Below, piece by piece: positions 17,236 through 45,260 of a DNA stretch of 64,000 nt. How positions within the stretch are numbered: the stretch's first letter is position 1; each line of letters starts with the position of its first letter. Position numbers and translations under genes: made by a program. Location of the stretch: contig NC_015635.1 of assembly GCF_000270245.1 (NCBI RefSeq), positions 248,001 to 312,000 on the forward strand, read 5' to 3'. This DNA is from Microlunatus phosphovorus NM-1. GTDB lineage: Bacteria > Actinomycetota > Actinomycetes > Propionibacteriales > Propionibacteriaceae. The notes under the pieces are model-generated. The model made no database searches. It saw only the letters and a program-made list of their open reading frames with translations, and was not told the origin of the DNA.

Positions 17236-17283
17236 CGCACCTTACTCCTTTGATCTCACGGAACTGTGGTGTCCGGGGTCGGA

Positions 17284-17517
17284 TCAGTGGCCGCCGACCC
17301 CGGTGGCTTCGACGACGCAGTCGTAGAGGTCTTGGACGGAGGTGACGGCCTTCGACACGTCCACGCTGCTGCCGATCGCGTCCTCGACGTTCATGGTGAA
17401 CTCGAAGACGTCGATCGAGTCGACCCCGATCGCTGTCAGATCGTCGCTCATCGCCAGCTCCTCGGCCGGCTTCCGGCTGAATTGGGCCAGCGCCTGCTTG
17501 AAGTCGTTCTCATTCAT
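17284..17517 (-). CDS. Acyl carrier protein, partner of the FabF-like synthase
   Basis: A 77-residue acidic carrier protein with the phosphopantetheine site GVDSIDVFEF (Ser34). It starts at the ATG at 17517, 9 nt after AAGGAG. The gene stands 48 nt upstream of the FabF-like gene and 67 nt downstream of the ABC ATPase gene, and is the second free carrier of the cluster. The DSID context is typical of fatty-acid or type II polyketide ACPs rather than NRPS carriers, so it probably carries an acyl chain for the FabF-like enzyme. Confidence 0.9.
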   Translation of the reverse strand: MNENDFKQALAQFSRKPAEELAMSDDLTAIGVDSIDVFEFTMNVEDAIGSSVDVSKAVTSVQDLYDCVVEATGVGGH

Positions 17518-17584
17518 GTCCCTGCTCCTTGTGTGATGTCGGTGTATCGGTCGGGCGGTGGGGCGATGCCTCGGGTCGGATTGG

Positions 17585-18406
17585 TCAGAATCCCTCGTGG
17601 CGCAGCCAGGCGAGCAGGTCGTCCTCGCGCTGGCCGGCGCGTTCCGCGGTCCACCGGCCCAACTCACGAGAGTTGACCAGTGAGCCGTCGCGGAGGTAGA
17701 TGACGCGATCTCCACGCGCCGCGCAGGACGGGTCGTGCGTGACCATGACGACCGTGGTGCCAGCGGCGTGCACGTCGGACAGGGCGTCCATGACCTCGAT
17801 GGTCATGCTGCTGTTCAGCGCCCCCGTGGGTTCGTCGGCGAACAGGATCGCCGGCTCGCAGGCCAGCGCCCGGCAGATCGACGCGCGCTGCAGCTGCCCA
17901 CCGGACACCTGGGTGATCCCGTGGGTTCTCACGTGCGCGATGTCGAACCGCTCCATCAGGGCATCGACCCGTGCTGTGGCGGCCGCTTTGTCCTTGGGAT
18001 TGGCCTTCAGCGCCGGCAACAAGATGTTGTCCCCGATGTTGAGGTTGGCCAGCAGGTAGGCCTGTTGGAACACGAAGCCCATCCGGGTCAGCCGAACCCG
18101 GCTCATCTCCGTGTCGCTGAGCGAGGTCAGCGGACCTCCCTCCAGCAGGACGGTCCCGCTGGAGGGACGGTCCATCCCGCTGATGCTGTACAGCAGCGTC
18201 GACTTGCCGGACCCGGACGCGCCCATGATCACCAGGAACTCGCCGGGGCGGACCTGCAGGTCGATCCCGTTCAGCACATGGGTGGGCGGGTCGGTCGATT
18301 GGTAGGTCTTGGTGATGCCGCGGCACTCCAGCGTCGGCTGATCACTGGTGCCGGGTGTCGGGGTGACCTGCTGTCCTTCCAGGTTCATTCGATCGGTCAT
18401 GGTCAT
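17585..18406 (-). CDS. ABC transporter ATPase, MacB/LolD type
   Basis: A 273-residue ATPase that pairs with the FtsX-type permease encoded just upstream. Walker A is IMGASGSGKSTLLYS, the Q-loop is GFVFQQAYLL, the signature is VSGGQLQRASICRAL, and Walker B is AILFADEPTGALNS with VTHD as the H-loop. About 35 extra N-terminal residues precede the domain. The ATG at 18406 has GGGAG 6 nt upstream; longer in-frame starts lack this. MacB-like systems move peptides, lipids or antimicrobials by mechanotransmission, so export of, or self-protection against, the cluster product is likely. Confidence 0.92.
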   Translation of the reverse strand: MTMTDRMNLEGQQVTPTPGTSDQPTLECRGITKTYQSTDPPTHVLNGIDLQVRPGEFLVIMGASGSGKSTLLYSISGMDRPSSGTVLLEGGPLTSLSDTEMSRVRLTRMGFVFQQAYLLANLNIGDNILLPALKANPKDKAAATARVDALMERFDIAHVRTHGITQVSGGQLQRASICRALACEPAILFADEPTGALNSSMTIEVMDALSDVHAAGTTVVMVTHDPSCAARGDRVIYLRDGSLVNSRELGRWTAERAGQREDDLLAWLRHEGF

Positions 18407-18417
18407 GATTGCTCCCG

Positions 18418-20820
18418 TCATTGATTCAGCCATGCGCTCTTGTCGGTGCGGCGGAGCCGCTGGGTAAGCAGAACGGCCCCGAGGTAGCCGGCGCCGACGA
18501 GGATCAACGGGTAGACCCCGTAGACCAGCCAGACGGTCGGCAGGAACTCCAGCTGGGCAATGCCCAGCCCGGCCAGCGAGATCAACCCGCCGACCAACGA
18601 CTCGCCCAGCGTCGCGGTGAACACCAGGCCTGCCACGGTCCCGAGGGCCGCCAGCAGCAGCGTTTTGCCTCGGGTCTGCGCGATGATCTCCCGGGCTGAG
18701 AACCCGATGGCGGACAGCACCCCCATCTTGCGCCGGTCGCTCGACATCCGGAGCTTGAGGAACAGGCTCGTGATGAGCACCGCGACCCCGATGCCGAACG
18801 CGAAGCTGAGCACGGCGGCACTGGCGAAGGCGTCGGTGACGTACGCCAGTGTCTGCTGAACGTAGTCCCGCATCGGGATCACCGCGGCAGCGGGGAACCG
18901 AGCACCGTACTCGGCTGCGATCGCGGCCGGGTCGACGCCGTCGGCGACATCGGCGTAGATGACGTAACCCGCCGCTCCCTGCGTCACCTCGCCCTGCATC
19001 TTGGCGGTGTAGCCACCGCTGGTCACGTCCTGGTAAATCCCGCTGACGACGTGGCTCGTCCACTCCTGGTCCTGGCGGACGCGCAGCTGATCCCCGGGTC
19101 CGACCTGGTATTTCTGCGCGTTCAGCACCGAGAGCGCGATCTCGCCCTCAGCCGGCGGCCCGCCCTCCAGGAAGTCCACCGTGCGGCCGGTGTAGTCACC
19201 GACTTCGACATCGAGTGTTTCGGCACCTTCGGGGCCCGCCACCTCGCCGAGGATCTTGGCGTAGGAGCGCACGTCGAGGAGCCGGTCGTCGTCGGCGAGC
19301 TGACCGGCCAGCTTGGAGCGCACCGCGTCGAGGTCATCGGTGTAGGCGAGGTCAGCGCGGATGTCGCTCTCCGGGGCGCCCAGGTAGGTGACGAACCGAG
19401 GACTCTCGAAGGTGCTGAGCAGGTTCATCGGCAGTGCCATCAGCACCGCGGCGAGGAAGAACACGGCCGGTAGCAGCGCCCACTGCCGCGCCTCCGCACG
19501 GAGGTCCAGCCACGCCAGCCGACGGTTGAGACTGCCGCCACGGGAGGAGATCAAGCTGGTACTGCGGACCCGCTGGGCCGCTCGCCGGGCCTGCTTCGCC
19601 GTCTGTCGCTCGGTCAAGGTGCTCCCGTGCACGAGCGCGTTCACCACCTCGATCCGGCGCACCCGGCGCAGGACGCTCCGGCAGATGACCAGGACCACGA
19701 GGTAGACGGCGACCAGTGCGAGTGTCGGCACCAGGAACGTCCAGACGCTGAGGGGCGCAGCCGCGTAGTTCACCCGGACGTCTCGGCTCAGCAGACCGGC
19801 CGCCAGGATCGCGAGCAGGCCGCCGATCACGCACGCAACGAGGGTCATCACGCCGTATTTCGCCAGGTACAGCCGCGAGACCTCTCGATCGGGGATCCCG
19901 ATCGCCTTCATCGCGCCGATCTCGCGGACCTGGTCCTGCAGTGTTCCTCGGATCACGAAGCGGAGGTTCAACATGGCGATGATGATCAGCACGACGCTGG
20001 CGAACATCAGTGCTATCGCGACCAGACCGTCGCTGAAGGCGTTGATGATACGGATCATCTGGTAGGTCACCGCCTGCCCGTTCTTGGGCAGCGCAGCGTC
20101 CGCATCGTAGGCGCCCTGCAGCTGCGCGGTGGCGCCAGGATCCTTCAGCCGGTACTCCACGATGATCTCCGGCTCGGCGCCGGCGGAGCGGCCGAGCGTC
20201 ACCAGATCGGCCGGCGAGACCAGGAACCGGGTCGAGGACGACAGCGAGGACGCCATCTGCGCGTCCCGGACGAATCCGCGGACGACCAGTTCGAGGCTGC
20301 CGGCCTCGGCACCGACCCTGAGCCGGTCGCCCTCCTGCAGACCGAAGCGCTGCTGGTAGGCCACCGGCAGGTAGACCTCGCCGGGGCCTGGCTGGGCGAT
20401 GTTGCCGGCCTGGTCGATCAGGTAGTCGAAGTCGGGATTCTGCTGGACGAACAGGTTGTCGATCAGGCTGTCCGACAGGTCGCCGGTCTGCCCCGTCGAG
20501 GGGCGCTGCCACGACAGAGCCGAGCTGTCGAATCCGTACATCCGAACCACGGTCCAGGCCTGGATGTCCGGCTGTCCGGCCGCGAACCGCTGCAGTGCCT
20601 CGGCGTCGTAGTCCCCTTTGTGCATCTGGAGGAAGTGTGGGGGCTTCGCCTCGGCGTAGAGCTGGTCGACCGCGCCCACGAGTCGCTCGATCACCATCGC
20701 CCCCGTGGCCATCAGGAACGCTGAGAGCACCAAGACGACGAGGAGTGCGAGGTTCACGCCCTTGTTCTTGATCAGGTCGTTGCCGGCGTAGCGCAGCAGC
20801 AGTGAGTTGCGGTTCGTCAT
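18418..20820 (-). CDS. FtsX/MacB-type ABC permease, two-unit form
   Basis: An 800-residue permease with two FtsX-like halves. The first has an N-terminal helix (NLALLVVLVLSAFLMATGAMV), a large extracytoplasmic domain and a block of three helices near 290-430 (FSDGLVAIALMFASVVLIII, YGVMTLVACVIGGLLAILAAGLL, WTFLVPTLALVAVYLVVLVI). The second half repeats this, with its own extracytoplasmic domain and three C-terminal helices. Ten or fewer helices is the usual count for this family. The ATG overlaps the upstream membrane-protein gene (ATGA) and the ATPase gene follows after 11 nt. Probable partner of that ATPase for efflux or immunity. Confidence 0.9.
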   Translation of the reverse strand: MTNRNSLLLRYAGNDLIKNKGVNLALLVVLVLSAFLMATGAMVIERLVGAVDQLYAEAKPPHFLQMHKGDYDAEALQRFAAGQPDIQAWTVVRMYGFDSSALSWQRPSTGQTGDLSDSLIDNLFVQQNPDFDYLIDQAGNIAQPGPGEVYLPVAYQQRFGLQEGDRLRVGAEAGSLELVVRGFVRDAQMASSLSSSTRFLVSPADLVTLGRSAGAEPEIIVEYRLKDPGATAQLQGAYDADAALPKNGQAVTYQMIRIINAFSDGLVAIALMFASVVLIIIAMLNLRFVIRGTLQDQVREIGAMKAIGIPDREVSRLYLAKYGVMTLVACVIGGLLAILAAGLLSRDVRVNYAAAPLSVWTFLVPTLALVAVYLVVLVICRSVLRRVRRIEVVNALVHGSTLTERQTAKQARRAAQRVRSTSLISSRGGSLNRRLAWLDLRAEARQWALLPAVFFLAAVLMALPMNLLSTFESPRFVTYLGAPESDIRADLAYTDDLDAVRSKLAGQLADDDRLLDVRSYAKILGEVAGPEGAETLDVEVGDYTGRTVDFLEGGPPAEGEIALSVLNAQKYQVGPGDQLRVRQDQEWTSHVVSGIYQDVTSGGYTAKMQGEVTQGAAGYVIYADVADGVDPAAIAAEYGARFPAAAVIPMRDYVQQTLAYVTDAFASAAVLSFAFGIGVAVLITSLFLKLRMSSDRRKMGVLSAIGFSAREIIAQTRGKTLLLAALGTVAGLVFTATLGESLVGGLISLAGLGIAQLEFLPTVWLVYGVYPLILVGAGYLGAVLLTQRLRRTDKSAWLNQ

Positions 20821-21305
20821 GCCAGGCTCCAGACGCCGGGGATCTGCAACGACATCACGGTCAGCACGACGTGGTAGACGACGTCCAGCACGATGTTGCC
20901 GAACTCGACCCAGTCGACCCTGCCGGTCTTCCGGCGCTTGCGCCAGATCTCCTGCGTGTGGGTCCACAACCCGCTCAGGCCATAGATGTAGAGGGTGACG
21001 AGCGTGGCGGCCCAGAAGTTGCCCTGGAACCAGATCGCCATCACGCCCATCACGCCCAGACCGAGCTGGGCGAACCCGTACTTGACCTGGAACGGTCCAC
21101 CGGGCCAACCCAGCTGCGCTGCGGTCTTCTCCGGGATGAGCACGTTGATGATGAACCCGAGCACGGCGATGATCCCGTGCGAGACCGCGAACTGGTGCAG
21201 CAGCATTGTCTCCAGCACGACGACGTGGTCGGCGGGGAAGCCTTGCAGGGCGAGCTGCACCACACCGGTGACCAATCCCGCGCCGATGATCGCGACGATC
21301 CACAT
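20817..21305 (-). CDS. Small membrane protein (possibly DUF6790-like)
   Basis: A 162-residue protein with about four hydrophobic segments (WIVAIIGAGLVTGVVQLAL, FAVSHGIIAVLGFIINVLI, YGFAQLGLGVMGVMAIWF, FGNIVLDVVYHVVLTVMS) and conserved-looking patches LLHQFAVSHG and GFAQLGLGVMG. The resemblance to DUF6790 is from memory and uncertain. A strong ribosome-binding site (AAGGAG, 8 nt) supports the ATG at 21305. It lies between the MFS exporter and the ABC permease, overlapping the latter by 4 nt, so a role in export or resistance is the best contextual guess. Confidence 0.72.
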   Translation of the reverse strand: MWIVAIIGAGLVTGVVQLALQGFPADHVVVLETMLLHQFAVSHGIIAVLGFIINVLIPEKTAAQLGWPGGPFQVKYGFAQLGLGVMGVMAIWFQGNFWAATLVTLYIYGLSGLWTHTQEIWRKRRKTGRVDWVEFGNIVLDVVYHVVLTVMSLQIPGVWSLA

Positions 21306-21307
21306 GT

Positions 21308-22678
21308 TCAGATCTCCTTGGTTTGGGCAGTCGTCTGCCGCAGGTGGTTGTCGAGCTCTCCGATGCTGCGTAGCCGGGGGGTGACCGCGGCCACCGCAAT
21401 CAGGCCCGCCGCGACGAGGACCAGCATCAGACCGATCCCGCGTGAGCTTCCGACGCCGATCAGTCGTCCCAGCGAGCCGGCCAGGGCGCCGTCGGCGGTG
21501 AGCAGCGGGGTGAAGACCGCGTCGGCGAGCACACCGGAGACGGTGTAGGCGACGATGTAGCCGAGCTGTGAGATCAGCCCCATCAGGCCCCAGACCCGAC
21601 CTTGCACGGCGTTCGGGATCGACGCTCGAGCGAGCACCTCGACGCTGGTGTTCAGGACCGGCAGCGTCAGGAAGAAGAAGAAGGCGAAGATCCCGATCCA
21701 GACGACGTCGACCGTGATCCCCATCGCGGCCACGGCGACTCCGGCCATGGCCAGCGAGAGCGAGAGGTACGTGCTCTGCCGGTGCCGCATGGTGAAGAGG
21801 CTGATGGCCAGGCTGGAGACCAGCATGCCGACCGCCGCCAGGGACCGGACGAGGCCCAGGCTCTGCTCGTCGGAGAGCTCCAGCAGCATCGGAGTGAGCA
21901 GAGTCTGCAGGAACCCCATGCAGAAGGTCACCAGGGTCGCCAGCACCATCAGCACCGTGATCCCACGATGGCGGATCAGGAAGCCCACACCGACGGACAG
22001 GTCGTTTCGGATGCTGTGCCGGACCGATGGCCTCGTGCTCCCGATCCCGCGCCAGACCACCACCATGCACGACGTGGTCACGATCATGGTGGTGATGTCG
22101 AGTACCAACACGAGCTGGATCCCGAAGTGCGCCATCAGCAGGCCGGCGATCGCGGGGGAGACCAGAAACTGGGCCGCCGAGGCGAACTGCACCAGGCCGC
22201 CGGCCCGGGTGTATTGCTCGGGGGTGAGGAGATCGGTGACGGTCGCCCGGTAGGCCGGGTCCATCACCGACGTGAACACCGAGCTGAGAGCGACGCACGC
22301 GCAGACGACGGCGGTGCTCGCGACTCCGTCCCGGAAGGCCAGCAGGAGTACGACCAAGCCGATCGCGGAGAACGTGTCGCCCAGGATCATCAGCAGGCGT
22401 CGGTCGAATCGGTCGGCGAGCACGCCGCCCAGCGGGGTCAGCAGCACACCGGGCAGGAACGCCGCCAACATGACCACGGCCACCGCGGTGCTGCTGCGGG
22501 TCTGGTGGTAGACCTGCACGGCGAGGCCGAACGCGGTCAGCCCGTTACCGACCCGGGCCACGAGCTGAGCCGCCCAGATCACCATGAACGAGCGGAACCC
22601 GTCCGGGGACTTGGCTCGGCGCGGCTGCGCCGGGACCGTTGCGGTGGCGCCGGTGGACCCAGACGTGGACTCAGACAT
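21308..22678 (-). CDS. MFS exporter, EntS / MFS_3-like
   Basis: A 456-residue major facilitator with about twelve helices. The loop 2-3 signature is GVLADRFDRRLLM, and the start of helix 1 (FRSFMVIWAAQLVARVGNGLTAFGLAVQVYHQT) resembles EntS-type siderophore and peptide exporters that accompany NRPS clusters. Its ATG lies inside the end of the thioesterase gene (8-nt overlap), and its stop is 2 nt from the next start, so it is fully embedded in the operon. Probable exporter of the assembly-line product. Confidence 0.9.
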   Translation of the reverse strand: MSESTSGSTGATATVPAQPRRAKSPDGFRSFMVIWAAQLVARVGNGLTAFGLAVQVYHQTRSSTAVAVVMLAAFLPGVLLTPLGGVLADRFDRRLLMILGDTFSAIGLVVLLLAFRDGVASTAVVCACVALSSVFTSVMDPAYRATVTDLLTPEQYTRAGGLVQFASAAQFLVSPAIAGLLMAHFGIQLVLVLDITTMIVTTSCMVVVWRGIGSTRPSVRHSIRNDLSVGVGFLIRHRGITVLMVLATLVTFCMGFLQTLLTPMLLELSDEQSLGLVRSLAAVGMLVSSLAISLFTMRHRQSTYLSLSLAMAGVAVAAMGITVDVVWIGIFAFFFFLTLPVLNTSVEVLARASIPNAVQGRVWGLMGLISQLGYIVAYTVSGVLADAVFTPLLTADGALAGSLGRLIGVGSSRGIGLMLVLVAAGLIAVAAVTPRLRSIGELDNHLRQTTAQTKEI

Positions 22679-23468
22679 CGTTCACGATCGCGTCGAGAGG
22701 CCCGAATGCGTGCCGGACGAACATGTGTCCCTCGCCCTCGAGGACGTGGGTGCGGAGCGGCCGCGCGAGGTAGTCCTGCCAGGCCGATGCCGTCCCCTCG
22801 GGGGTGTGGTGGTCGTGCTCGCCCAGCACCAGCCGGGTCGAGACGTCGAGACGGCCTGCGGGTTGCCGCTTGGCCTCCTCCAGCACCTGGTAGTCCGCCC
22901 GGAAGGCAGGCAGGAAGTACGAGACCAGAGCCGGGTCGCTGGCCACCTCCGTCGGGATCGCCCCGAACCCGGACAGGTGGCGCAGCAGATCCTGCTCGGA
23001 GGAGGCGGCATGGCCGGCGACCGACAGGTCGCGCGGGGCGCACGAGGCGGACAGCACGAGGTCGCCGGGCTGCCGGTGCCAGAACTCCGGCCGGTCCGCC
23101 ATCGCGAGCAGGACGTGGTAGGCCACGATCCCGCCCATGCTGTGACCAAAGAACACCGCCCCGGGCAGCAGGATCTCCCGCAGAGCGTCGAGATAGCACC
23201 TGACCAGCGGTCCGAGTCGACGGTGCGCCGCCAGGTTCGACGGCCCGTGACCCGGTGGGTTGACGGTCCACACGTCCCAGTTGCCGCTGAGGTGGCCGAC
23301 CAGCCCGTTGAACGAGGCTCCGAAGCCGCCCAGGTAAGGGAACATGACGAGTTGACGTCCGTTCGGTGAAGGCCGGAGGTTCCACAGGACCGACGTCGTC
23401 GCCGTAGCCAGGCGCGTGGCACGCCTGGTCGGGACGGACCGGAGGTCACGGACCGCTGTCGAGCTCAT
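22671..23468 (-). CDS. Type II thioesterase of the assembly line
   Basis: A 265-residue alpha/beta hydrolase of the GrsT/TEII family: N-terminal LVMFPYLGGFGASFNGL, PPGHGPS, nucleophile Ser110 in FFGHSMGG, Asp219 in LGEHDHHTP and His248 in GEGHMF. TEIIs clear misprimed or stalled carriers. Because the megasynthase has no integrated thioesterase, this enzyme is also a candidate for releasing the final product, but that is inference. Its ATG overlaps the preceding gene stop (ATGA). Confidence 0.9.
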   Translation of the reverse strand: MSSTAVRDLRSVPTRRATRLATATTSVLWNLRPSPNGRQLVMFPYLGGFGASFNGLVGHLSGNWDVWTVNPPGHGPSNLAAHRRLGPLVRCYLDALREILLPGAVFFGHSMGGIVAYHVLLAMADRPEFWHRQPGDLVLSASCAPRDLSVAGHAASSEQDLLRHLSGFGAIPTEVASDPALVSYFLPAFRADYQVLEEAKRQPAGRLDVSTRLVLGEHDHHTPEGTASAWQDYLARPLRTHVLEGEGHMFVRHAFGPLDAIVNDV

Positions 23469-24451: not shown

Positions 24452-24479
24452 GACGATCACTCCAGGTTCGGTTGGGGGC

Positions 24480-25820
24480 TCAGAGTCCGTAGATGTCGTC
24501 GATGGACTGCTTGGCTTCGGCCACCGCACGGCGGGCCCGCGGCTGGAAGAAGTCGAGGTCGTCCTCGGACAGCTGGGCGTTCGGGTACATCCGGGAGATG
24601 CTGGAGATCAGCACCCCATGGCGCTGCATGGCGGTGGCGAGGATGATGTCTTTGCCCATCAACTCGAAGTCGTAGTCGCTGGGTCGCTCCAGCGGTGTCG
24701 CCCGGCAGTGGAAGGCGGACACACCGGGCGGGCCCTGCACCACCAACGGCAGACCGACGCGGTGGGCCTCGAGCGTCAAGATGTCCTGCAGTGCGGCGGC
24801 TCGGCGGTGCATCGCGTGCAGCAGCGCCTCGTCGTCGCGGGCGAAGATCTCGTACGTGGCCTTCACGGCCGCGGTACCCAGCGGATAGCCGTTGTAGGTT
24901 CCGGCGTGGATCACCTGCTTGCTCTCCAGCAGGCCCATGATCTCGCGCTTGCCGACGACCGCAGACACGGGCACGCCGCCGCCACCGATCGCCTTGCCGA
25001 AAGTGGACAGGTCGGGGGTGACACCGAGCCGCTTCTGGGCGCCGCCGACCCCCAGCCGTACGCCGGTGATCATCTCGTCGAAGATCAACACCACGCCGTG
25101 CTCGGTGCACAGACGACGCAGCAGCTCGAGAAAGCCGGGCAACGGCTCGATCGAACCACCGTTGACGCAGATGGGCTCGGTCAGCACCGCGGCCAGGGTT
25201 TCGCCGTAGGTCTGGAAGAAGTCCTCGAGCCGGTCGGCGTCGTTCCAGGGCAGCAGGAATGACTGGTCGGCCATCACGTCGGTGGCTCGACCGGCCGTGC
25301 CCTTGTAGTCGCCGCGGAAGTCCACCGGCACCGGACGCGCCGGGTCGAGGACGCGACCGCCCATCACGTTGTCGGCGTTGCCGTGGTAGTGGTTCTCGAA
25401 GCGCAAGAACCGGTTGCGGCCGGTGTGGGCACGCGCCAACCGCAGGGCGGTCTGCAGGATCTCGGTGCCGGACAGGCCGAACCGGACCATCTCCGCCGAG
25501 GGGATGTGGGTGTTCATCAGCTCGAGCGCGTCGGCGTCGAAGTCGCAGTGACTCACGCACAGCACCCGTTCCAGGGCCTCGCTCAGGGCATCGAGATAGT
25601 CCTCGTTGCGGTGCCCGAGGACCATCGCGCCGAAGCGGGCGTACAGGTCGAGGTACTCGTTCCCGTCCATGTCACGCAGTCGGCTGCCGGCGCCGTCGAC
25701 GAAATGCAGCGGCACCTCGGCCCACGGCATGTTGAAGTTGTAGTGAACCCCGCCGGGGAGGACGCGCTTGACCCGCTGGTGGTACTCGAGGTTGCGGCTG
25801 ACCGTCTGCAGGACGGTCAC
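24480..25820 (-). CDS. Class III aminotransferase, glutamate-1-semialdehyde-aminomutase-like
   Basis: A 446-residue PLP enzyme. The PLP lysine is Lys276 (STFGKAIGGGG), the pyridine-nitrogen Asp is 248 (LIFDEMITGVRLG), and the phosphate pocket is LSGTEILQTALR. The same family is found as an embedded domain in lipopeptide synthetases of the iturin and mycosubtilin type, where it converts a carrier-bound beta-keto acyl group into a beta-amino acyl group. Here it is free-standing, its ATG overlapping the stop of the carrier-protein gene (ATGA), which strongly suggests it acts on that carrier. A heme-pathway HemL role is unlikely in this context. Confidence 0.88.
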   Translation of the reverse strand: MTVLQTVSRNLEYHQRVKRVLPGGVHYNFNMPWAEVPLHFVDGAGSRLRDMDGNEYLDLYARFGAMVLGHRNEDYLDALSEALERVLCVSHCDFDADALELMNTHIPSAEMVRFGLSGTEILQTALRLARAHTGRNRFLRFENHYHGNADNVMGGRVLDPARPVPVDFRGDYKGTAGRATDVMADQSFLLPWNDADRLEDFFQTYGETLAAVLTEPICVNGGSIEPLPGFLELLRRLCTEHGVVLIFDEMITGVRLGVGGAQKRLGVTPDLSTFGKAIGGGGVPVSAVVGKREIMGLLESKQVIHAGTYNGYPLGTAAVKATYEIFARDDEALLHAMHRRAAALQDILTLEAHRVGLPLVVQGPPGVSAFHCRATPLERPSDYDFELMGKDIILATAMQRHGVLISSISRMYPNAQLSEDDLDFFQPRARRAVAEAKQSIDDIYGL

Positions 25821-26059
25821 GCCGCAGCCTCCTCGGCGAGGTACTCGCTGATGTCGTCGACCGTCTTGAACTCGAACAGCGCGACCGGGTTGATGTCCAG
25901 GTCGAGCTGCTTGCGCAGCCGGCTGATGATCTTGAGCGCCTGCACCGAGGACACACCGAGCCGCATGAAGCTCGCCTGGTCGTCGATGTCGGCCGGTGGG
26001 ATGGCGATCTCGGCGGAGATCTCCTGCAGGAGCACGGTCCTGATCGTTTCCTTGGTCAT
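25817..26059 (-). CDS. Free-standing carrier protein with an LGVSS site
   Basis: An 80-residue carrier protein. The modification site is LGVSSVQALKI, with Ser38 taking phosphopantetheine and Ser37 replacing the usual aspartate. Helix 2 and the VALFEFKTVDDISEYL end fit a modular PKS/NRPS carrier more than a fatty-acid ACP. It lies 16 nt after the free KS gene and overlaps the aminotransferase gene, so KS, carrier and aminotransferase look like one module split into three genes. Confidence 0.9.
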   Translation of the reverse strand: MTKETIRTVLLQEISAEIAIPPADIDDQASFMRLGVSSVQALKIISRLRKQLDLDINPVALFEFKTVDDISEYLAEEAAA

Positions 26060-26075
26060 GGTTCCTCTTTCGCGG

Positions 26076-27920
26076 TCAGAGCCAGTGCGGCTTCTTCGAG
26101 TACGGATAGGGCATCAGGGTGAGGACGGTGCCGGTGCCGGCGGGGAAGAAGTGCTCCCAGTCCACGGCGGCTCCGGCGGCAAACAGCGCGGCGGCGGTCT
26201 CCAGCGGCAACCACCCGGGATCGAGGACCACCGTCCGCGGGTCGTGGTCCCCGGATCCGAGTGACACGGCCAGTTCGCTGCGGCCGGGTTCGGCGTCGGA
26301 GACCAGCAGGGGCGAGGCCAGCGCCGCGCGGAGCCGCTCCTCGCCGGCTGATGCGGTAAGGGTCGGCCGTAGCAGCACCCGTCGCACCGGGCGGTCCACG
26401 TGTGTCACACCGACCTCGCACAGCGCTCGGCTCGCTGGGTCGAACCGGACGGTCGCCCGCCAGTCGTAGGCGGGTCGGAACCGGGCCAGCGTCATCGCCA
26501 GGTTGTACGGGTCGACGTCACGCCTGGTGAGCTGGGCCGACAGGTCGTCGAGCATGCGGTGCAGGGCGTCCTCGTCTTGAGCGGACAGGCACAGCACGGG
26601 GCACGACAGCTCGGTGCCGCGGCGTTCCGGGTCTCCCTCTTCGATGACGACGTGCACATTCGTGCCGCCGAGACCCAGAGAGGTGATCGCCCCTTGACGT
26701 GGACGGTCTGCCACCCGTGGCCACAGTGTCGGCTCGGTGATCACCCGAAACGGGGTGTCCTCCAACTGCAGCAGCGGGTTCACGGTCTCCAGGTGCAGGT
26801 TGGGCACCAGCTGCTCGTGCTGGAGGCATAGCAGCAGCTTGGCCAACCCGGCCCCTCCGGCCGCCCCCAGCAGGTGACCGATGTTGGACTTGACCGATCC
26901 GATCCCGACCGCCGTGTCCCCGAAGTCGGACTTGCGGAACACCTTGGACAGGGCGTTCAACTCGATCGGGTCGCCGATCCGGGTCCCGGTGCCGTGCGCC
27001 TCGACGTAGGAGACCCGGGTGTGGTCGAGTCCGTCGGCGTAGCAGTCCCGGATGACGTTGGCCTGCCCACGGGGATTGGGGGCCATGATGTTCAACGACG
27101 ATCCGTCGTTGTTGATGGCGTACCCCCGGATCCGACCGTAGATCCGGCGGTTGCGGCGCAGGGCGATGTCCTCGCGCTCGAGGACGCAGACCACCGCCCC
27201 CTCGCCCAGCAGTGTGCCGTCCGCCTTCTCGTCGAACACTCGCGTGTAGGGGTGTGAGGTGGTGATCCCCCCGATGGTGCACAGCTGCGCGTTGTAGGCG
27301 GCGCTGAACAGGTTGGCACCCCCGACGACCGCTCCGTCGCAGTCCTGATGGCGGATCGCGTCCGCCGCCTGCGTCAGGCTGGTCAGGAACGACGAGCAGG
27401 CCGTGTCCACCGCCATCACCGGACCGGTGAGGTCGTACTGGTGCGACACCCGGGCGGCGAGGGCGCTGTTGATCACGTTCATCACGGTGCGCGGGTGCAC
27501 GTCCGCGGTCCCGTGCTCGTCGAGGTAGCGACAGACCAGCGGGTAGTAGCTGTTGCTGGCGATCGCCATGTGGACGGCATAGCGACGATCCGCCGCGCGG
27601 GGACCTGCCTGACGCCGAGTCTCCAAGAGGCCGGCATCGCACATGGCCTCGTAGCTCAGCTCCATCACCATCCGGTGCTGTGGGTCCATGAACCGCGCCT
27701 CGTCGGCCTCGATCCCGAAGAACCCGGCGTCGAAGTACTCGATGTCGTCGACCTCGCCAATGGTGTCGCGCCAGTGCGGGGCACGGGCCAGTTCTCGACG
27801 CCGTTCGCTCACCACGGCGGTGCGGTCGACCCCGTCGACCAGGAGCTGCCAGAACTCGTCCTGAGTCGTGGCGCCCGGCAAGCGCAGCGCGAGGCCGGTG
27901 ATCGCGATGGGGGTGGTCAC
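26076..27920 (-). CDS. Free-standing PKS ketosynthase with a degenerate AT remnant
   Basis: A 614-residue protein. Residues 1-425 form a modular-type KS with Cys175 (DTACSSFLTS), His309 (EAHGTGTRIGD) and His349 (KSNIGHLLG). The remaining 190 residues begin like a KS-AT linker (CPVLCLSAQDEDALHRML) and end with a post-AT linker (LMPYPYSKKPHWL). Between them there is no GHSxGE acyltransferase site and the segment is far too short for an AT, so it looks like a collapsed AT domain. The GTG start overlaps the megasynthase stop (GTGA). It presumably extends the chain on the next-encoded carrier, with an extender loaded by an AT elsewhere. Confidence 0.9.
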   Translation of the reverse strand: MTTPIAITGLALRLPGATTQDEFWQLLVDGVDRTAVVSERRRELARAPHWRDTIGEVDDIEYFDAGFFGIEADEARFMDPQHRMVMELSYEAMCDAGLLETRRQAGPRAADRRYAVHMAIASNSYYPLVCRYLDEHGTADVHPRTVMNVINSALAARVSHQYDLTGPVMAVDTACSSFLTSLTQAADAIRHQDCDGAVVGGANLFSAAYNAQLCTIGGITTSHPYTRVFDEKADGTLLGEGAVVCVLEREDIALRRNRRIYGRIRGYAINNDGSSLNIMAPNPRGQANVIRDCYADGLDHTRVSYVEAHGTGTRIGDPIELNALSKVFRKSDFGDTAVGIGSVKSNIGHLLGAAGGAGLAKLLLCLQHEQLVPNLHLETVNPLLQLEDTPFRVITEPTLWPRVADRPRQGAITSLGLGGTNVHVVIEEGDPERRGTELSCPVLCLSAQDEDALHRMLDDLSAQLTRRDVDPYNLAMTLARFRPAYDWRATVRFDPASRALCEVGVTHVDRPVRRVLLRPTLTASAGEERLRAALASPLLVSDAEPGRSELAVSLGSGDHDPRTVVLDPGWLPLETAAALFAAGAAVDWEHFFPAGTGTVLTLMPYPYSKKPHWL

Positions 27921-30900
27921 GACCGTGCTCCGATCGAGGTGGCCTCGAGCGATTCCACGGAGTCGGCCAGCCACTCCAGGTGCAGGTGCTCGTCGTCGTG
28001 CCACACGTTGACGTGGGTGTGAGCGAGACCCGGTCCGTCCGCCGTGGTTTGCGGCATCTCGTGGGCGGGAATGTGGCCCTGGAAGTTGACCAGGGTCAGC
28101 TGGAGCCTGCCCTGCTCGTTGCGATAGACCTGTTGGAGGTCGCCGAGCAAGCCGGATCGGTCGGGTGTCGTGCTCAGCCCGTCCAGGAAGTGGACGCCCT
28201 CCTCCCGGGTTCGGTCGAGCCGCTCGGCGATGCCGTGAGTGCCTGCTCCGTCGCGCAGCAGGACCGGAACGACGTCGAGGAACTCACCGACGCAGTCGGT
28301 GTAGTCCTGGCCGAGCCACCGTCGGCAGTCGTTGACCAGACCGACCGCGATCGACCTCTGACCGCTCAGCCGCGACAACTCCTCGTGCACGGTGCGAATC
28401 GCCAGCTCGAGAGGGTTGTGCCGCTCCAGCCGGAGGCTGCGCCGGCCGCGTGGGCGTGCCGAGGCGGGGGCGTCCAGCAGCGAGGCGTTGGCGGTGAGCC
28501 AGCCCGCGTAGTCGTAGCTGGCCAGCTCGGTGCCCCAGTCCGGCTCGACAGCGACCGCTTCGGCGTAGCGGCTGTATGGCTGGACCGTGGTGAGGTCGGC
28601 GCCGCGGACGAGGCAAGTGATCTCCTCCCGCAGGATCCCGGCGCTGAAGCCGTCGAAGATGCTGTGGTGAAAGGCCCAGACCAGTCGGACGCTGTCGTCG
28701 GTGTCCTGCAGGATGACGCACCGCCACAACAGCCCGCTGCCGAAGGCCTCCTCCGGCAGGGCCGCCGCGACCTCCTCGGTGACCTGCTGAAGCTGCTGGG
28801 GTTCGACACCGCGCAGGTCCAGCACCGCCAGCAGCGGCGCCAGTCCCTCGAAAGCCTCGGGCGGTAGCACCTCGAAGTGATCCCCGACGAGCCGCGCCCG
28901 CAGCATCTCGTGCCGCAGCACGATCGCGGCCACGGCATCCTTCAGCTGCGACAGGGCGACGTGGTCGATGGCGTGCAGGTACCCGCCCGTCGCCGCGCCG
29001 CTGGAGCGGTGCAGCCGAGCCGCCGCTCCTATCTCGAATCGGTAGTCGGGCTGCTCGTCGGTGAACGCCTCGGCCACCCGGACGCTGTCCGCGACGGCCC
29101 AGGTGACCAGACGCCGGACCTGCTCGGCGGCCAGGGTCCGGGTGGCACTCGGCTCGCTCCACACGCCCGCGTTCCCGGCCGTCGCCGACAGGATCACCGC
29201 GAGGGCCGCGGCGCTGGGGTGCCGGTACAGGTCGCTGATCTGCACCTCGAGGCCGGTCTCTCGCAGCCGGCGCACCACCGCGATGGCCTGCAGCGACTGG
29301 GCGCCGGCCGCGAAGAAGTCGTCGTCGAGGCCCAGCTCAGGGCGACCCAGCACCTCGCGGAAAGTCGCCAGGATCGTCAGGTCGGTCGCCGCCGTGGTCA
29401 CCGTTGGGCCGGCGTCCTCGGTCCGAGCCGGCTGGGCCTGGCTCGCCAGTAGCCGGTGATCCACCTTGCCGTGCGGGGTCAGGGGAAGGCCGGGAAGCCG
29501 GACGAGGTGCTGCGGCACCAGATGGGGTGGCAACGCCGCGTGCAGCGCGGCGCGCAGGTCATCCTCGTCCGGGGCCGACGCGCCCGTGTAGAACGCGGTC
29601 AGCCGACTGTCGTTGCCGTCCTTGGTGTGGACGACGACAGCTTCTCCGACACCTGTGCAGGCCTGCACGGCGAACTCGATCTCGGACAGCTCGATGCGGT
29701 GGCCGGCGTGCTTGATCTGCCGGTCGGTGCGGTCCAGATACACGATCCGCCCTCGCTCGTCCAAGACCACCCGGTCACCCGTGCGGTACAGCCGTCGGCG
29801 GATCGCGCCGATCTCTGCTGGGAACCGCTCGGAGGTCAGGTCAGGTCGATGGTGGTAGCCGAGTGCGACGCCGGGTCCGGCCACACACAGCTCCCCAGGC
29901 ACGCCGCGCGGCACGTCGGTGCCGTCCGGGTGCACGATGAACAGCTCTCGGTTGCGTGCCGGGTAGCCGATCGGCATCCGGTCGCCCTCAGGTGCTTCGT
30001 CGACGCGGTACCACGTCGAGCACACCGATGCCTCGGTCGGCCCGTACAGGTTGTACAACCGTCCGGGCCCCAGCACGTCGAACGCGCGCCGGGCCGCCCA
30101 TGGCTGCATGGCCTCGCCGCCGACGTACAGCGCGGTGAGTCCGCTCACGGCCGCGGGATCCTCGGCCATCAGCAGGTGGAACACCGCGGTGATCAAGATG
30201 CCCGCGTCGATCCGCTCCTCGCGCAAGAACCTGGTGAGCATCGCCATGTCCTGGTTCAGCGTGTGGTCACCGAGGACGAGAGTCGCCCCGCTGAGCAGGG
30301 TGGCGTACAGGTCGAGGAGGGACGGGTCGAACGTCGAGCCGGTCAGGTACATGATGCGCTGGTCCGGCCGGTAGTCCATGTAGCCGTTGTCCACGCTGGC
30401 ACTCAGGACACCTCCGTGAGACACCAGGGTGCCCTTCGGCTGTCCCGTCGTACCCGAGGTGTAGATGAGGATCAATGGGCTGGCGGCGGTGAGGTCCGCC
30501 GGCGGCGTGTAGGACCCCGCCAGGGCGTCCGGGCGGTACGCAGTCACCTCGGCGGACCACGGATGGGCGCCGGGATCGGTCGCCAGGACGACCCGGGCGC
30601 CGCTGTCGGCGAGGATGTGCGCAAGCCGGGGCAGGGGTGTTTGCGGGTCCTGGGGGATCTCGATGGCGCCGCACTTGAGCAGCGCGAGCCGGCAGAACAC
30701 CTGCCACGGGTCGCGCTCCACCAGGCAGACCACGAAGTCACCGACGCCGACACCCGTTTCCTGCAGGCCTCCCGCGATGGAGTCCGTGATCCGGTCGACC
30801 TCCGCGTAGGTCCACTCGCGGCCGTGCCAGCTCAGGGCCGTCCGGTGGGCATGCTCGGTGAGGGCGGTGCGCAGCCGGTCGAGCAAGGAGCTGTCGATCT

Positions 30901-33900
30901 CCGGGCCGGCGGCCGTCAGCTCGGCCCGGCGCCGAGCGAGCTCGGCTGGTGACTCCAGACGCAGGTCGCGCAGCGGGCGCGACGGGTCCACGGTCAGCTC
31001 GACCAGGAGGAGGTCCAGCTGCTGCGCCAGGCGGCTGATCGTGCCGGCGTCGAACAGCTCGGTGCGGTACTCGATGTCCACCTCGAAGTCGTCGGCACGC
31101 TCGGCGATGCTGACCGACAACGCGTACCGGCTCATGATCGGACCGGGGGGCTGCAGTTCCAACCGCAGACCGTCGAGCTCGGGCTCGTCGGTGCCGACGG
31201 TGACGTAGTTGACCAAGACGTCGAACAGCGCGTCGTCCGGTCCCCCGGCGGCGGGACGGAGCTGGGCGAGCACCTGATCGAGGGGGGCCTCCTGGTGGGC
31301 GAGCAGGGCGAGAACGTCGTCTCGAACGGTCCCGACGGCGTCGGCGACGGAGTGCTCGGCCGCAGCCCTCAGGCGCAGCGGCAGCGTGTTCGCGAACATG
31401 CCCACCACCTGCTCGGACCCGCGCATCGTGCGTCCGGAGACGGCGGTCCCCACCACGAACTCCGGCTGGCCGCTGTACAGGCTCAGCAGCCGGGTCAGGG
31501 CGGTGAGGTGAACCATGTACGGCGTAGCACCGCAGGCTCGTGCCAGGTCGGCGACGTCTCGACGGCGGGCGGTGCTGACGAAGGTGTGCCGAGCGCCTTC
31601 GTGGGTCGCGGCGCCGGACGGCGTCCGGTCCGTCGGCAGCTCCAGCCGGGGAATCTCCCCGTCGAGCAGCTCGGCGAAGAAGGCCACGTCCTGGTCGAAC
31701 GCGCCCGATTGGGTCCGTGCCTGGAGATCGGCGACGTAGTCGGTGTAGCTGATCGGAGCTCCGGCCACCGGGTGGCCCTGCAGCTCGGCGGTGATCTCGT
31801 CGGACAGGACCGCCAGTGAAGTCTGGTCGGCGACGATGTGATGCAGATCCAGGGAGAGGAAGTGCTCCTCGGCGCTGACCCGGACGACCTCGACGCGCAG
31901 CAGCGGCGCGCTGGAGAGGTCGAACGATCGCGGCCGGGCCTGCCGCCGTGCGGCAGCCTGGGCCGCGCTCAGGTGCAACACCGAGACGACGTCGTCGCCG
32001 CAGGCGTGGATGTGCTGCATCAGGCGGCCGCCCTCGAGGTGGAAGCTGGTGCGCAGCTGCTCGTGCCGAGCGACGAGACGGGCGAAGACGGCGCGCAGGG
32101 CGTCGACGTCCAACGGTCCGACCACCCGGTACGCCAGCGCCAGGTTGTAGGCGGTGGTGTCCTCCTGCAGGGCGCAGGCGGCGTACAGGCGCTGTTGCGC
32201 CGGCGAGGCCGGCACGACCTGTGGTGCCCTGGCGTCGGCCGGGGCCGGTTGGGGGAGCACCGGCACGAGGCAGGCGGCCGGCTCCGACCGGGAGCGGCGG
32301 GACTCGGCCAACGAGGCGAGGTCCCGATAGCGCGAGTGGGCGAAGACATCGGCCACGGTGAGCTCGGCGCCGGCCCGGTCTGCCAGCAGGGCACAGAAGC
32401 GTACGGCGGTGAGCGAGTCGCCGCCCGAGGCGAGGAAATCCGCGTCGGGTGTCGGCGCGGTCCCGAGCACCTCCGACCAGGTGGCGCGGATCGCGTCCAC
32501 CGTCGCCGTCGGCTGGTCGGCCGTCGCCGATGCCGGCGCGGGGGCTGAGGCGGGCAGGGCGGGCTGGGCCACTGGTGTCGGCGTGGGGTGGCTCAGGCCC
32601 AGCAGGTGGTCCAGGCGGACGTCGGAGGTGAACCGGCGCCGCTCGAAGGCATAGCCGGGCAGTGGCACCCGACGGCCGGGGGTGCAGAACAGGCTCCGAT
32701 CGACGTCGGTCCCGTGCACCCACAGCGAGACGAGCAGCTCTCGGACCAGCGCGGCATCCACGGGCCCGGACACGAGGGACACCGCATCAGCCGGCGAGGT
32801 GGACGGGCTCGTCGGCGCGACGCCGTCGCGCAGGCGCGTCACGATCTGATCCGACCTCAGCTCTCCGCGCACCGCTGCGGCGGCGATGCGGAGCAGTCGA
32901 TCCGATCCCGGTCGGGCGAACAGGGCGTCCGGGCCGGTGACGCGCAAGACGGCGGCTCGCAGCACGAACTGGGCGACCCGGCAGACGCCGACCGGCACCG
33001 AGCGGGAACCCTCCAGCGCGGCCCGCAGTCGTTCGCGTACGTCGGCGTCGAAACCGTGCAGCTCGCGTTCGAGCGCCGCACGCAGCGCGGCTCCCGCCGG
33101 CGTCGGGTCGTCGCGGACCGTGCTCCCGAGCACGAGGTCCACGTCGTCGGAGACGTTCAGGGCGGCGCTGTCGTCCGACGGCTCGATCCAGCGGAATGTG
33201 CGGTCCGCAGCCGCCACCGCGGCCGCCCGTGACGGATACTGCGCGCGGCCCTGCGCCAGTGTGTACGAGACGTCGCGCAGCGGCGCGCCGCCATGGCAGA
33301 ACGCTTCCAGGGCTTCCTGCATGCGCCGTCGGGAGTCATCGGTGCGCGCGGAGACCGGGAGCACGCAAGGACCGAGCTCGGACTCGTCTGCGGGGCGCTC
33401 GGGCGCGCGCTCGAGGACGATGTGCGCGTTGGTCCCCCCGATACCGAGCGAGCTCACGGCGGCGAGCCGCAGCTCGTCGGTGGGCACCATGACCTTGCTG
33501 GGCACGAACAGCGAGCCCTGCTGCTCGATCCGGGAGTTCAGCCCGGTGAAGCCGGCCATCGGCGGGATCTGACCGCGTCGCAGCACACCGACTGCTCCGA
33601 GGAGCCCGGCGATGCCGGCGGCGGCGTCCAGGTGCCCGATGTTCGCCTTGACCGAGCCGAGAGCGCAGGGTCGATTCTGCCCATAAGCCCTGGCCAGGGC
33701 GGCGTACTCGATCGGGTCGCCGAGTGAGGTACCCGTGCCGTGGGCCTCCACGAACCCGACCGCGTCAGCGGCGACACCGGCGTCGGCGAGCGCGGCCCGG
33801 ATGACCTGCTCGTGGCCGCCGACGCTGGGGGCGGTGAAGCCCATCTTCTGGCCGCCGTCGTTGTTGACCGCGCTGCCGGCGATGACGGCATAGATGTGAT

Positions 33901-36900
33901 CGCCGTCCGCGAGCGCGGCGTTCAGCGGCTTGAGCAGCACCACGCCACAGCCCTGGCCACCGACGGTGCCGTCGGCATCCTCGGAGAAGGGCCGGCACAC
34001 ACCGTCCCGGCTGAAGATCATGCCCTCGGACCAGGCGTAGCCCTCCCGGCGGGGGAAGTTCAGCGCGACGCCGCCGGCCAGCGCCATGTCGGCGTCGCCC
34101 TGGCGCAGACACCTCACCGCTTCGTGGACGGCGACCAGCGAGGTCGAGCAGGCTGACTGGACGGTCATCGCAGGACCGGTCAGGTTCAGCTTGTAGGCCA
34201 CCTTGGTGGCCAGGAAGTCCTTCTCGTTGGCGGTCAACACCTCGTACGCGCCGATCGGGTCGCTGTTGCGACCGAGCAGGCCGGCCACCCAGGCGACGTT
34301 GCTGCCGCTGCCGGCGAACAGGGCGATGGTGGCCGAGTGCTCTCCCGGTACGTAGCCGGCGTCCTCGAGGGCGTGCCACGCGGTCTGGTGCAGCAGCCGC
34401 AGCTGCGGGTCCATCGTCTCGGCTTCCTTGGCGGAGTAGCCGAAGAAGTCGGCGTCGAAGACGTCGGCCTCCACGACACCGCGTGCGTTGACGTAGCGGG
34501 GGTCATCGATCAGGTGCTCGGGGATCCCGGCGTCCCGCAGCTCGGCGGGTGTGTGCCGGGAGATGCTCACCCGGCCGTCGAAGCGGTTGGCCCAGTACGT
34601 GCTCAGGTCGGGCGATCCGGGGAACTCACCGGCCACCCCGATCACCGCGATCTTGCGCTCGTCGCCGGATCGCTGCTCGGGCCAGTCGTCGAGGGCCGCG
34701 AGATCGTCCAGGGTGATGGGCGGATCGGTCTCCGGGTCGGCAGCGTCTCCCTGGTCATGGCGGTCGGCGTGCGGCCGGCTCAGCACGTCCGCCAGGCTCT
34801 GGGGCGTCGGGTGCTCGAACAGCTGGGTGAGTGGCACTTCCACGCCGAGCGTCTCGGCCAGCCGGTTGTTGACCAGCATCAGCTTGTAGGAGCTGCCGCC
34901 GACATCGAAGAAGTTGTCGCCCGCCCGGACGGCCTGGCCGAGGACGGACTCCCAGGCCGCCAGGATGTGGTCCAGCGTCTCCTGAGGTGTGACTCCGGGG
35001 GCTGCCTGTGCGGGGGCTGACTGTTCGGGGGTCGACGCGGGAGTCGGGGCATCGAGGACGTCGGCGCCCCGCTGCGTGGTCAGGAGCCGCAACGCGGCGC
35101 GGTCCACCTTGTCGTTCGGCAGCACCGGAAGCTCAGCCAGCAGCCGGATGCGGGCGGGTCGCATGTAGGAGGGCAGGGCTGCGGCGACCTCGGCCCGGAT
35201 CTGTGTGGCGCGGTCGACGCCGTCCCTGGTGCAGTGGTAGAGGACGAGCGCGTCGTCCTCGACCGCGGCGACGGCATAGCTCACGCCGGCCACGCGCATC
35301 GCCGTCTGCTCGAGCTCGCCGAGCTCGATTCGGTTGCCGTTGACCTTGACCTGTTGGTCGATCCGCCCCAACACCTGGATCTCGCCGTCCGCGCGGCGCA
35401 GTCCCGAGTCGCCGGTGCGGTAGACCGTGATCCCGGGCAGTTCCCGGATCTCGGTGAACGCGTGGGCCATCCGCTGGGGATCGTTGGTGTAGCCGAGGGC
35501 CAGTCCTGGGCCGGCGATGCAGAGCTCACCGGTCACGCCCGCGGGCGCGATCGCGCCGGACTCGTCGACGATCAACGCGGCGGCACCGCGGATGGCGGTG
35601 CCGACCGTGATGTCGTCCCCGCGAGCGAACTCCTTGACGGTGGCGGTCACCGTCGTCTCCGACGGGCCGTACATGTTGAACACGCGCGCGTCGGTCTCCG
35701 CCTGCAACAACCCGAGCAAGCTCTCCGCGAAGTGCTCGCCTCCGCAGACGACGACCCGGAGATCCCGAAGCCGGTCGCGGAAGCGCGGGTGCCCGCACAG
35801 GGCAGCCATCTTCGACACCGGCATCTGGACGTGCGTCACGGCGAAGGCGGTGATCCGGGTCGCGATGGCGGCTGCGTCCTTCTGGTCGGCCACCGGGCAG
35901 ATGTGCACGCTCGCACCGCATGCCAGCGGGATGAGGCTCTCGAAGGTGAAGATGTCGAACGTCGGGTCGGCCAGGCTGATGATGACGTCGCCCGGCGCGA
36001 ACAACCGTCGCTCCTGGTGGTCACGCAGCAGGTTGGCCACTCCGCGGTGGGGGATGACGATGCCCTTCGGAGCACCGGTCGAGCCTGACGTGTACACGAC
36101 GTAGACGGGGCTCTCGGCGGTGACTCGTGTGCCGTCGACCCCTGTGCCGTCGACCTCCGTGCCATGGGAGGCATCGAGGGTGCCGAGCCGAGCTTGGGTG
36201 CAGGTCGCGATGTCGAAGACGGTCGGGATGGCCGCGGCCGACGCCAGGCCCGCGGGCGCGAACCCGAAGCGGGGACGGAGGTCGTCCAGGATGCGGGCGT
36301 GCCGCGCGGCCGGCTGCGACGGGTCGAGCGGCAGATAGGCCCCGCCCGCCTTGAGGATCCCCAGCTGGGCCACGAAGAGGTTGACGTCGCGGACCGCGAA
36401 CAGCGCGACCGTCTCGCCCGTACGCAGACCGGCGGCGCGCAGCCGGGCCGCCTGGGCGTTCGCCATCTCATCTAGTTCGGCGTAGCTGTAACGATCACCG
36501 GTGGCGTCGATGAGCGCGGTCGCCGCCGGCGTCCGGGCGGCCTGCGCGGCGATCACGTCGTGGATCGACCGGAACGGCTCGTCGATCAGACGAGCACGGA
36601 TCTCCTCCGCCGCCGAGGGGCTCGGGAGCTGGTCGAGCCGGGCTCCGGCGTCCTCGCACACACTGGCCAACACCGCGTCGAGCTGCGCGACCAGGTGCTC
36701 GATGGTGGTGCCCAGGAACACGTCCGCCGGGTAGTCCACCTGCATCCTCAGCCCATCCGCCGACTCGGTGCAGGTGATCACGAGGTCCATCCCGACGGCG
36801 ACGGGCGGCAGCTCGAGTTGATGAGCGGTCACGCCGTCGATGTCGAGCTCGTGGTGTTCGATGTTGTGGTAGTCGAGGGAGACGTCGCACAGTGGGTGCC

Positions 36901-44323: not shown

Positions 44324-44368
44324 TAGTGTGTCCAGCAGACCAATAACTTGTCTCAGGAGACGCCAGTC

Positions 44369-45234: not shown

Positions 45235-45260
45235 CTGACCGGCGGGTCGCCCGGTGTCAG
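45235..45260. terminator. Weak hairpin between the convergent afsA-type and receptor genes
   Basis: CTGAC and GTCAG arms with additional GGG/CCC pairing over about 26 nt, overlapping the receptor stop codon. It may end transcription from both sides; imperfect pairing and no T-tract keep this tentative. Confidence 0.35.

What the first reader, a model, noticed from the sequence alone, without database searches (positions are those of the whole stretch)
24480..27920. Split KS - carrier - aminotransferase module, likely making a beta-amino group
Three overlapping or adjacent genes encode a free KS (with AT relic), a carrier with an unusual LGVSS site, and a glutamate-1-semialdehyde-type aminotransferase. 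In iturin and mycosubtilin synthetases these activities occur in one polypeptide and install a beta-amino group. Here the same set appears in trans.
Basis: partly seen in the sequence, partly recalled or inferred. Interest (0 to 1): 0.75.

Follow-up and report, generated by a model that had tools for sequence, protein, structure and literature searches.

The report
Free-standing ketosynthase, carrier, aminotransferase module
A bacterial gene cluster for an unknown natural product carries a chain-extending enzyme, a small carrier protein and an amino-group-adding enzyme as separate neighbouring genes, an arrangement found in twelve genomes from two bacterial phyla that probably builds an unusual beta-amino acid by a route that may have evolved apart from the known one.

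Summary
On the minus strand lie a ketosynthase whose AT core is missing (26076-27920), an 80-aa carrier with LGVSS (25817-26059) and a class III aminotransferase (24480-25820). All are intact, tightly packed, and follow a 5,429-aa NRPS-PKS. The same set occurs in 11 other genomes (10 actinobacterial, 1 Oscillospiraceae MAG; AMT identity 55-81%): a conserved, scattered cluster family. In one, ketosynthase and carrier are fused; in another, a free acyltransferase sits between carrier and aminotransferase.

No reductive domain or thioester reductase was found in the core, so beta-amination of a carrier-bound beta-ketone in trans is the best reading (about 0.6), but untested. It is not a split iturin module by descent in my trees: the AMT forms its own clade outside the embedded (MycA-type) and HemL clades, although an AU test rejects neither sisterhood, and the ketosynthase is not with those preceding embedded AMTs. 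The genome has its own HemL. Discrete AMTs acting on carrier-bound ketones are known (cispentacin AmcC), so this is a new variant of a known kind. Open: what the ketosynthase extends, and which C domain uses the beta-amino unit.

The parts
27917..44206 (-). NRPS-PKS megasynthase, 5429 aa: C-A-T-KS-AT-T-C-A-T-KS(no AT)-T-C-A-T-C
   Evidence: Pfam on two halves; same order in 10 of 10 relatives with a full gene, except that the carrier after KS2 was not detected in L059 and L061 with my queries
38510..39343 (-). AT domain inside the megasynthase; the only AT found in the genome besides a FabD-like protein
   Evidence: PF00698 search of the whole own genome: 2 matches
27920..29179 (-). terminal C domain (C4, boundaries approximate)
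   Evidence: HHxxxD motif in 10 of 11 members, DHxxxD in L060; own clade in the C tree
26076..27920 (-). free ketosynthase without AT core (KSf), 614 aa from GTG 27920
25817..26059 (-). free carrier protein, 80 aa, LGVSS site
24480..25820 (-). class III (GSA-type) aminotransferase, 446 aa
23465..24529 (-). polytopic membrane protein of CPBP/Rce1-like predicted fold (ORF as listed; true start may lie further in)
   Evidence: no Pfam hit; in 12 of 12 loci; model pLDDT 82.9, best Foldseek match Rce1 4cad E 1.3e-4
22671..23450 (-). free thioesterase (start approximate)
   Evidence: PF00975 6e-31 in the longer ORF; in 11 of 11 relatives
21308..22678 (-). MFS exporter
   Evidence: conserved
18418..21399 (-). 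FtsX-type permease
   Evidence: conserved
17585..19063 (-). ABC ATPase (gene starts inside this ORF)
   Evidence: PF00005; conserved
17284..17715 (-). second free carrier (gene starts inside this ORF)
   Evidence: PF00550; in 9 of 9 actinobacterial relatives that reach this far
15997..17235 (-). FabF-like ketosynthase, a second copy besides the housekeeping FabF
   Evidence: NF005589 452 bits over cut-off 387; 40.5% to the other FabF of the genome
15293..15997 (-). phosphopantetheinyl transferase
   Evidence: PF01648; end of the conserved block

Best explanation
The three genes are a dissociated beta-amino-acid-forming module of a conserved NRPS-PKS pathway. Shown: the genes, their intact active-site motifs, their tight packing and their conservation. 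Inferred: malonyl is loaded onto the free carrier by the AT embedded in the megasynthase or by FabD, since these are the only ATs found in the genome; the free KS condenses an acyl group with it to give a beta-ketoacyl carrier; the aminotransferase, acting in trans, converts the ketone to a beta-amine. Least certain is the use of the product. I favour it as the amine taken by the C-terminal C domain of the megasynthase, which would make carrier, KS and AMT stand in for the adenylation domain of a last NRPS module; the alternative is that it primes the first C domain.
For: KSf, carrier and AMT are neighbours in 12 of 12 loci. In L057 KSf and carrier are one ORF; in L060 a free AT lies between carrier and AMT. 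KS triad, carrier serine and K276 are conserved. No KR, DH, ER or thioester reductase was found in the megasynthase or the core genes scanned, so a beta-ketone should remain. Only two ATs were found in the genome. Not a heme gene: 238 bits against a HemL cut-off of 527, own HemL elsewhere, and 9 of 10 relatives also have a HemL over the cut-off. KSf lies outside the clade of KS1, KS2 and some other KSs of hybrid lines, and the megasynthase ends in a C domain, so KSf probably does not extend the chain on the last NRPS carrier. Precedents: AmcC aminates an ACP-bound keto acyl group in trans (PMC10698177, passages); MycA AMT does so in cis (PMC3870968, passages).
Against: No biochemistry. The AMT is not in the clade of AMT domains known for this reaction. 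Its nearest relatives in the full tree are free-standing GSA-type enzymes of unknown role (SH-aLRT 95 and 91); six larger stretches around such relatives were fetched but not analysed. C1 and C4 do not fall in the main group of C domains that follow AMTs, so neither use is favoured by descent. KS1 and KS2 also leave unreduced ketones, so the AMT could act there too. The AMT structure model was too poor to inspect the pocket (pLDDT 54.9).
Confidence: 0.6

Rival explanations
1. The AMT makes a free unusual amino acid or amine (from an alpha-keto acid or aldehyde) that an A domain of the megasynthase activates; its position next to KSf and the carrier is only operon order.
For: It scores best against free-standing GSA-type enzymes and sits with free-standing relatives in the 88-row tree. 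Transaminases of actinobacterial PKS alkaloid clusters are described as monofunctional enzymes acting on polyketide aldehydes (PMC10829540, passages).
Against: No thioester reductase was found. The AMT follows the carrier directly in 11 of 12 loci, with only a free AT between in the other. A-domain pocket residues are conserved but I could match none to such an amino acid.
Confidence: 0.2
2. The AMT works in trans on several beta-ketones of the line (carriers after KS1, KS2 and KSf), giving a product with repeated beta-amino groups.
For: None of the three PKS steps has a reductive domain; a free AMT is not bound to one carrier.
Against: C2 and C3 follow the first two PKS steps and are not in the main after-AMT group of C domains, though two of 23 after-AMT C domains do group with them; the AMT gene overlaps one carrier gene only.
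Confidence: 0.1
3. It is a split iturin/mycosubtilin module by descent, with the AT lost.
For: Same set of activities; the AU test does not reject a clade of cluster and embedded AMTs (p 0.60).
Against: Embedded AMTs form a clade with support 100 that leaves the cluster AMTs out; KSf is outside the KSs that precede embedded AMTs; 32% identity to MycA AMT against 41-57% for the embedded AMTs.
Confidence: 0.07
4. The aminotransferase is a HemL paralogue with its old activity, kept by chance.
For: HemL models are among its best matches; AU test p 0.46 for a clade with HemL.
Against: Far below the HemL cut-off; the motif [PA]GGVNSPVRA of 13 of 13 HemL rows is GGVHYNFNxP in 12 of 12 cluster rows, with a one-residue insertion after GKA[IVL]; a separate HemL exists.
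Confidence: 0.03

Closest known systems
Mycosubtilin/iturin synthetase MycA (KS-AT-ACP-AMT in one polypeptide; domain order recalled)
   Same: KS, carrier and class III AMT together; expected product a beta-aminoacyl carrier
   Different: Here three separate proteins, no AT in the module, a C domain before the module and none known after it, AMT outside the MycA clade
Cispentacin pathway, AmcC (PMC10698177, passages)
   Same: Discrete class III aminotransferase acting on a keto acyl group bound to a free ACP
   Different: Type II PKS-like with KS-CYF pair; no NRPS partner in the passages seen; AmcC is likened there to acetylornithine aminotransferase; AmcC itself was not compared here
Glutamate-1-semialdehyde aminomutase (HemL)
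   Same: Fold class and best family scores
   Different: Scores under half the HemL cut-off, motif changed, separate HemL present
Free-standing AMTs in cyanobacterial NRPS operons (L092, L108, L116, L124)
   Same: Separate AMT gene beside NRPS genes
   Different: They are 46-50% identical to MycA AMT, and no free KS-carrier pair was recognised beside them
Trans-AT PKS
   Same: Two AT-less KSs in the pathway
   Different: In the window no free AT; the only type I AT is in cis in the first PKS module. Only L060 has a free AT

Membership tests
Embedded beta-amination AMT (MycA type) | falls in the clade of embedded AMTs | tested here: not met
   23-row clade, SH-aLRT 100, without the 12 cluster rows; sisterhood not rejected, p 0.60
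Embedded beta-amination AMT (MycA type) | part of the same polypeptide as KS and carrier | tested here: not met
   AMT is a separate ORF in 12 of 12; KS and carrier fused in L057 only
Embedded beta-amination AMT (MycA type) | aminates an ACP-bound beta-ketothioester | not testable with these tools
   no biochemistry
HemL | passes TIGR00713 cut-off | tested here: not met
   238.1 bits against 527.3; the cluster AMTs of the 10 relatives searched score 237-265
HemL | motif GGVNSPVR near the N terminus (substrate role recalled) | tested here: not met
   GGVHYNFN in 12 of 12
HemL | the genome's only HemL candidate | tested here: not met
   separate HemL at G000:C1:5095608-5096774, 554 bits
PKS-aldehyde transaminase (actinobacterial alkaloid type) | thioester reductase in the pathway | tested here: not met
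   none in the Pfam scan of the synthase and neighbours
Trans-AT PKS | AT-less KS modules | tested here: met
   KS2 and KSf
Trans-AT PKS | free AT in the cluster | tested here: not met
   two ATs in the whole genome: one in the synthase, one FabD-like far away; met only in L060

The most novel reading that the evidence does not exclude
An NRPS module without an adenylation domain: the last amino acid is not chosen from the pool but built on the module's own free carrier by a ketosynthase and an independently recruited aminotransferase, and the terminal C domain of the megasynthase then joins it to the peptide. In the Oscillospiraceae member, where FkbH, acyl-CoA dehydrogenase and 3-hydroxyacyl-CoA dehydrogenase genes and a free AT are present, the unit could be an alpha-hydroxy-beta-amino acid.
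Probability: 0.25. Interest if true: 0.75.

Novelty: new variant of a known kind. Interest (0 to 1): 0.5.

Why it matters
A free-standing beta-amination unit would be far easier to assay and to transplant than one embedded in a megasynthase: KS, an 80-aa carrier and AMT can each be purified. The set marks an apparently undescribed cluster family shared by Glycomyces, Antribacter, Stackebrandtia, Propionibacteriaceae, Brachybacterium, Cryobacterium and an Oscillospiraceae MAG, so its product is reachable from several named strains. If the AMT was recruited apart from the MycA lineage, the same chemistry evolved more than once on assembly lines.

Tried and rejected
Structure of the AMT: the model from 12 rows had mean pLDDT 54.9, so I did not search with it. 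Substrates of the A domains: pocket residues were read off by motif positions from memory and are conserved, but match no code I could assign; PDB hits only gave generic gramicidin/surfactin-type relatives. Terminal C domain against PDB: weak hits only. Destination of the beta-amino unit: a C-domain tree (74 of 93 rows: 16 rows of four clusters and 3 ambiguous rows left out) did not place C1 or C4 with the main group of C domains that follow AMTs. Plasmid collection: only matches under 60% identity, the 20 listed under 43%. Larger stretches around six free-standing AMT relatives were fetched (L162-L167) and not analysed. Literature: nine searches gave no paper that I could recognise from titles and starts of abstracts as describing this cluster; the library holds open-licence PMC papers only. 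The AMT tree used 88 of 129 collected rows and the AU test 40 of those 88, after the 88-row AU test did not finish. The query for the carrier after KS2 was wrongly bounded; that carrier was seen through another query in 9 of 11 members.
Full report
What is there. The window is part of a 5.68 Mb genome held as one contig. On the minus strand, a 5,429-aa NRPS-PKS (27917-44206) is followed by a ketosynthase without an AT core (KSf, 26076-27920), an 80-aa carrier (25817-26059) and a class III aminotransferase (AMT, 24480-25820). The synthase stop and the KSf start share GTGA, as do the carrier stop and the AMT start; 16 nt separate KSf and carrier. This is the layout of a translationally coupled operon (inference). 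After it come a membrane protein, a free thioesterase, an MFS exporter, an FtsX permease, an ABC ATPase, a second carrier, a FabF-like KS and a phosphopantetheinyl transferase.

The synthase reads C-A-T-KS-AT-T-C-A-T-KS-T-C-A-T-C (my domain boundaries). Its second KS, like KSf, has no AT. The AT carries HAFH, by recall the malonyl type. No KR, DH, ER or thioester reductase domain was reported. The whole genome gave two AT matches: this one and a FabD-like protein about 3.3 Mb away, next to the other full-length FabF-type KS. So the AT-less steps must draw on one of these two, if the loading is by an AT of this Pfam family.

It is a family. One scan of 84,980 species genomes with the AMT kept the best 80 of 510 confirmed loci; 11 are close (55-81% identity) and the other 69 are at 42% or less. 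All 11 carry KSf, carrier and AMT beside each other. Ten have a full synthase ORF, of 5,283-5,537 aa, in the same domain order, save that the carrier after KS2 was not detected in two. In the nine actinobacterial relatives that reach far enough, and in the window, the whole block runs to the phosphopantetheinyl transferase; beyond it and before the synthase no gene is shared by most members. Hosts are Glycomyces (3), Antribacter, a Stackebrandtia MAG, Pseudopropionibacterium, a Propionibacteriaceae MAG, an Actinomycetota MAG, Brachybacterium, Cryobacterium and an Oscillospiraceae MAG. In the window's genus KSf was found in 1 of 20 genomes, its own, at E 1e-100. Such scatter suggests horizontal transfer (inference).

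Two members are telling. L057 has KSf and carrier as one ORF. L060, from Bacillota, has a free AT (PF00698, 4.7e-27) between carrier and AMT, and further on an FkbH-domain protein (TIGR01686, 246 bits over a cut-off of 147), a 3-hydroxyacyl-CoA dehydrogenase, an acyl-CoA dehydrogenase, an ETF subunit and a C-N hydrolase. By recall such a set makes hydroxymalonyl or related extender units. The second carrier, FabF-like KS and transferase were not found in the stretch held. Both members tie KS, carrier and, in L060, AT loading together as one functional step.

The AMT. It is far below the NCBIfam cut-off of every family shown (best score 258.6 against 398; HemL model 238 against 527). The closest solved structures are GSA aminomutases and 4zm3/4zm4 (PctV by recall), with MycA AMT well behind (1e-36). 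In a tree of 88 of the 129 rows collected, the 12 cluster AMTs are one clade (100), the 23 AMTs embedded in or lying beside PKS/NRPS genes, MycA included, are another (100), and 13 HemLs a third (99). The cluster rows join free-standing GSA-type enzymes (SH-aLRT 95, then 91). This last point is weak: on 40 rows the AU test rejects neither a clade with embedded AMTs (p 0.60; its tree even scored 1.4 log units higher) nor one with HemL (p 0.46). Shown: a separate, long-stemmed lineage inside neither group. Not shown: which it is sister to. Motifs agree: HemL [PA]GGVNSPVRA (13 of 13) becomes GGVHYNFNxP (12 of 12), and among the 84 ingroup rows only the cluster rows have an extra residue right after GKA[IVL]. 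The genome has its own HemL (554 bits); so do 9 of 10 relatives, the exception being the Oscillospiraceae MAG, where the cluster AMT is the best HemL match at 265 bits.

The KS. In a 67-row tree KS1 and KS2 lie in a group of 26 rows (support 100) with four KSs of other hybrid lines; KSf lies outside that group and outside those preceding embedded AMTs. The 12 KSf rows as one group have support of only 69, and this tree used the simpler model. I read it as KSf not taking its acyl group from an NRPS carrier, in line with the C domain that ends the synthase.

How it probably works. AT or FabD loads malonyl on the 80-aa carrier; KSf makes a beta-ketoacyl carrier; AMT makes the beta-amine. Precedents exist in cis (MycA: PMC3870968, passages) and in trans (AmcC: PMC10698177, passages). 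What KSf extends is unknown. Since the synthase ends T-C and the next carrier is this one, I favour the C domain joining the peptide to the beta-amino unit; priming of the first C domain is the other option. The C-domain tree favours neither.

'The same set in trans' is right as a statement of likeness, not of descent.

Novelty. Stand-alone AMTs in NRPS or PKS clusters are not new: cyanobacterial loci here have them, and AmcC was shown to act on an ACP-bound substrate. New, as far as nine searches of an open-licence library can tell, are this cluster family and a free KS-carrier-AMT unit serving an NRPS-PKS. I call it a new variant of a known kind.

Noticed in passing
window 15293-17715: A second FabF-like KS (40.5% to the other FabF of the genome), a free carrier and a phosphopantetheinyl transferase close the conserved block in the actinobacterial members. 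They could make a starter or, for the KS, be a resistant copy of a drug target.
   Followed up: partly
window 23465-24529: Membrane protein without Pfam match, present in 12 of 12 loci; its model resembles Rce1 (4cad) and SpdC (6u0o), so CPBP-like. One Glu (E171) is invariant, but the usual EExxxR and His motifs (recalled) do not appear in the alignment.
   Followed up: partly
L060 8899-9918 and 16202-21247: Oscillospiraceae MAG cluster with free AT, FkbH, acyl-CoA and 3-hydroxyacyl-CoA dehydrogenases, ETF and C-N hydrolase: an extender-unit-like set not seen in the actinobacterial clusters.
   Followed up: partly
window 33548-34657: The second KS of the megasynthase also lacks its AT, so two of three PKS steps in this pathway need an extender unit from elsewhere.
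   Followed up: yes
window 44348-45229 (+) and 45257-45997 (-): AfsA/ScbA-like gene (90.5 bits, cut-off 200) and a TetR regulator beside the cluster, with no counterpart found in the other loci: perhaps local butyrolactone-type control.
   Followed up: no
L092, L108, L116, L124: Cyanobacterial NRPS operons with a free-standing AMT of the MycA lineage and no PKS gene recognised beside it.
   Followed up: partly
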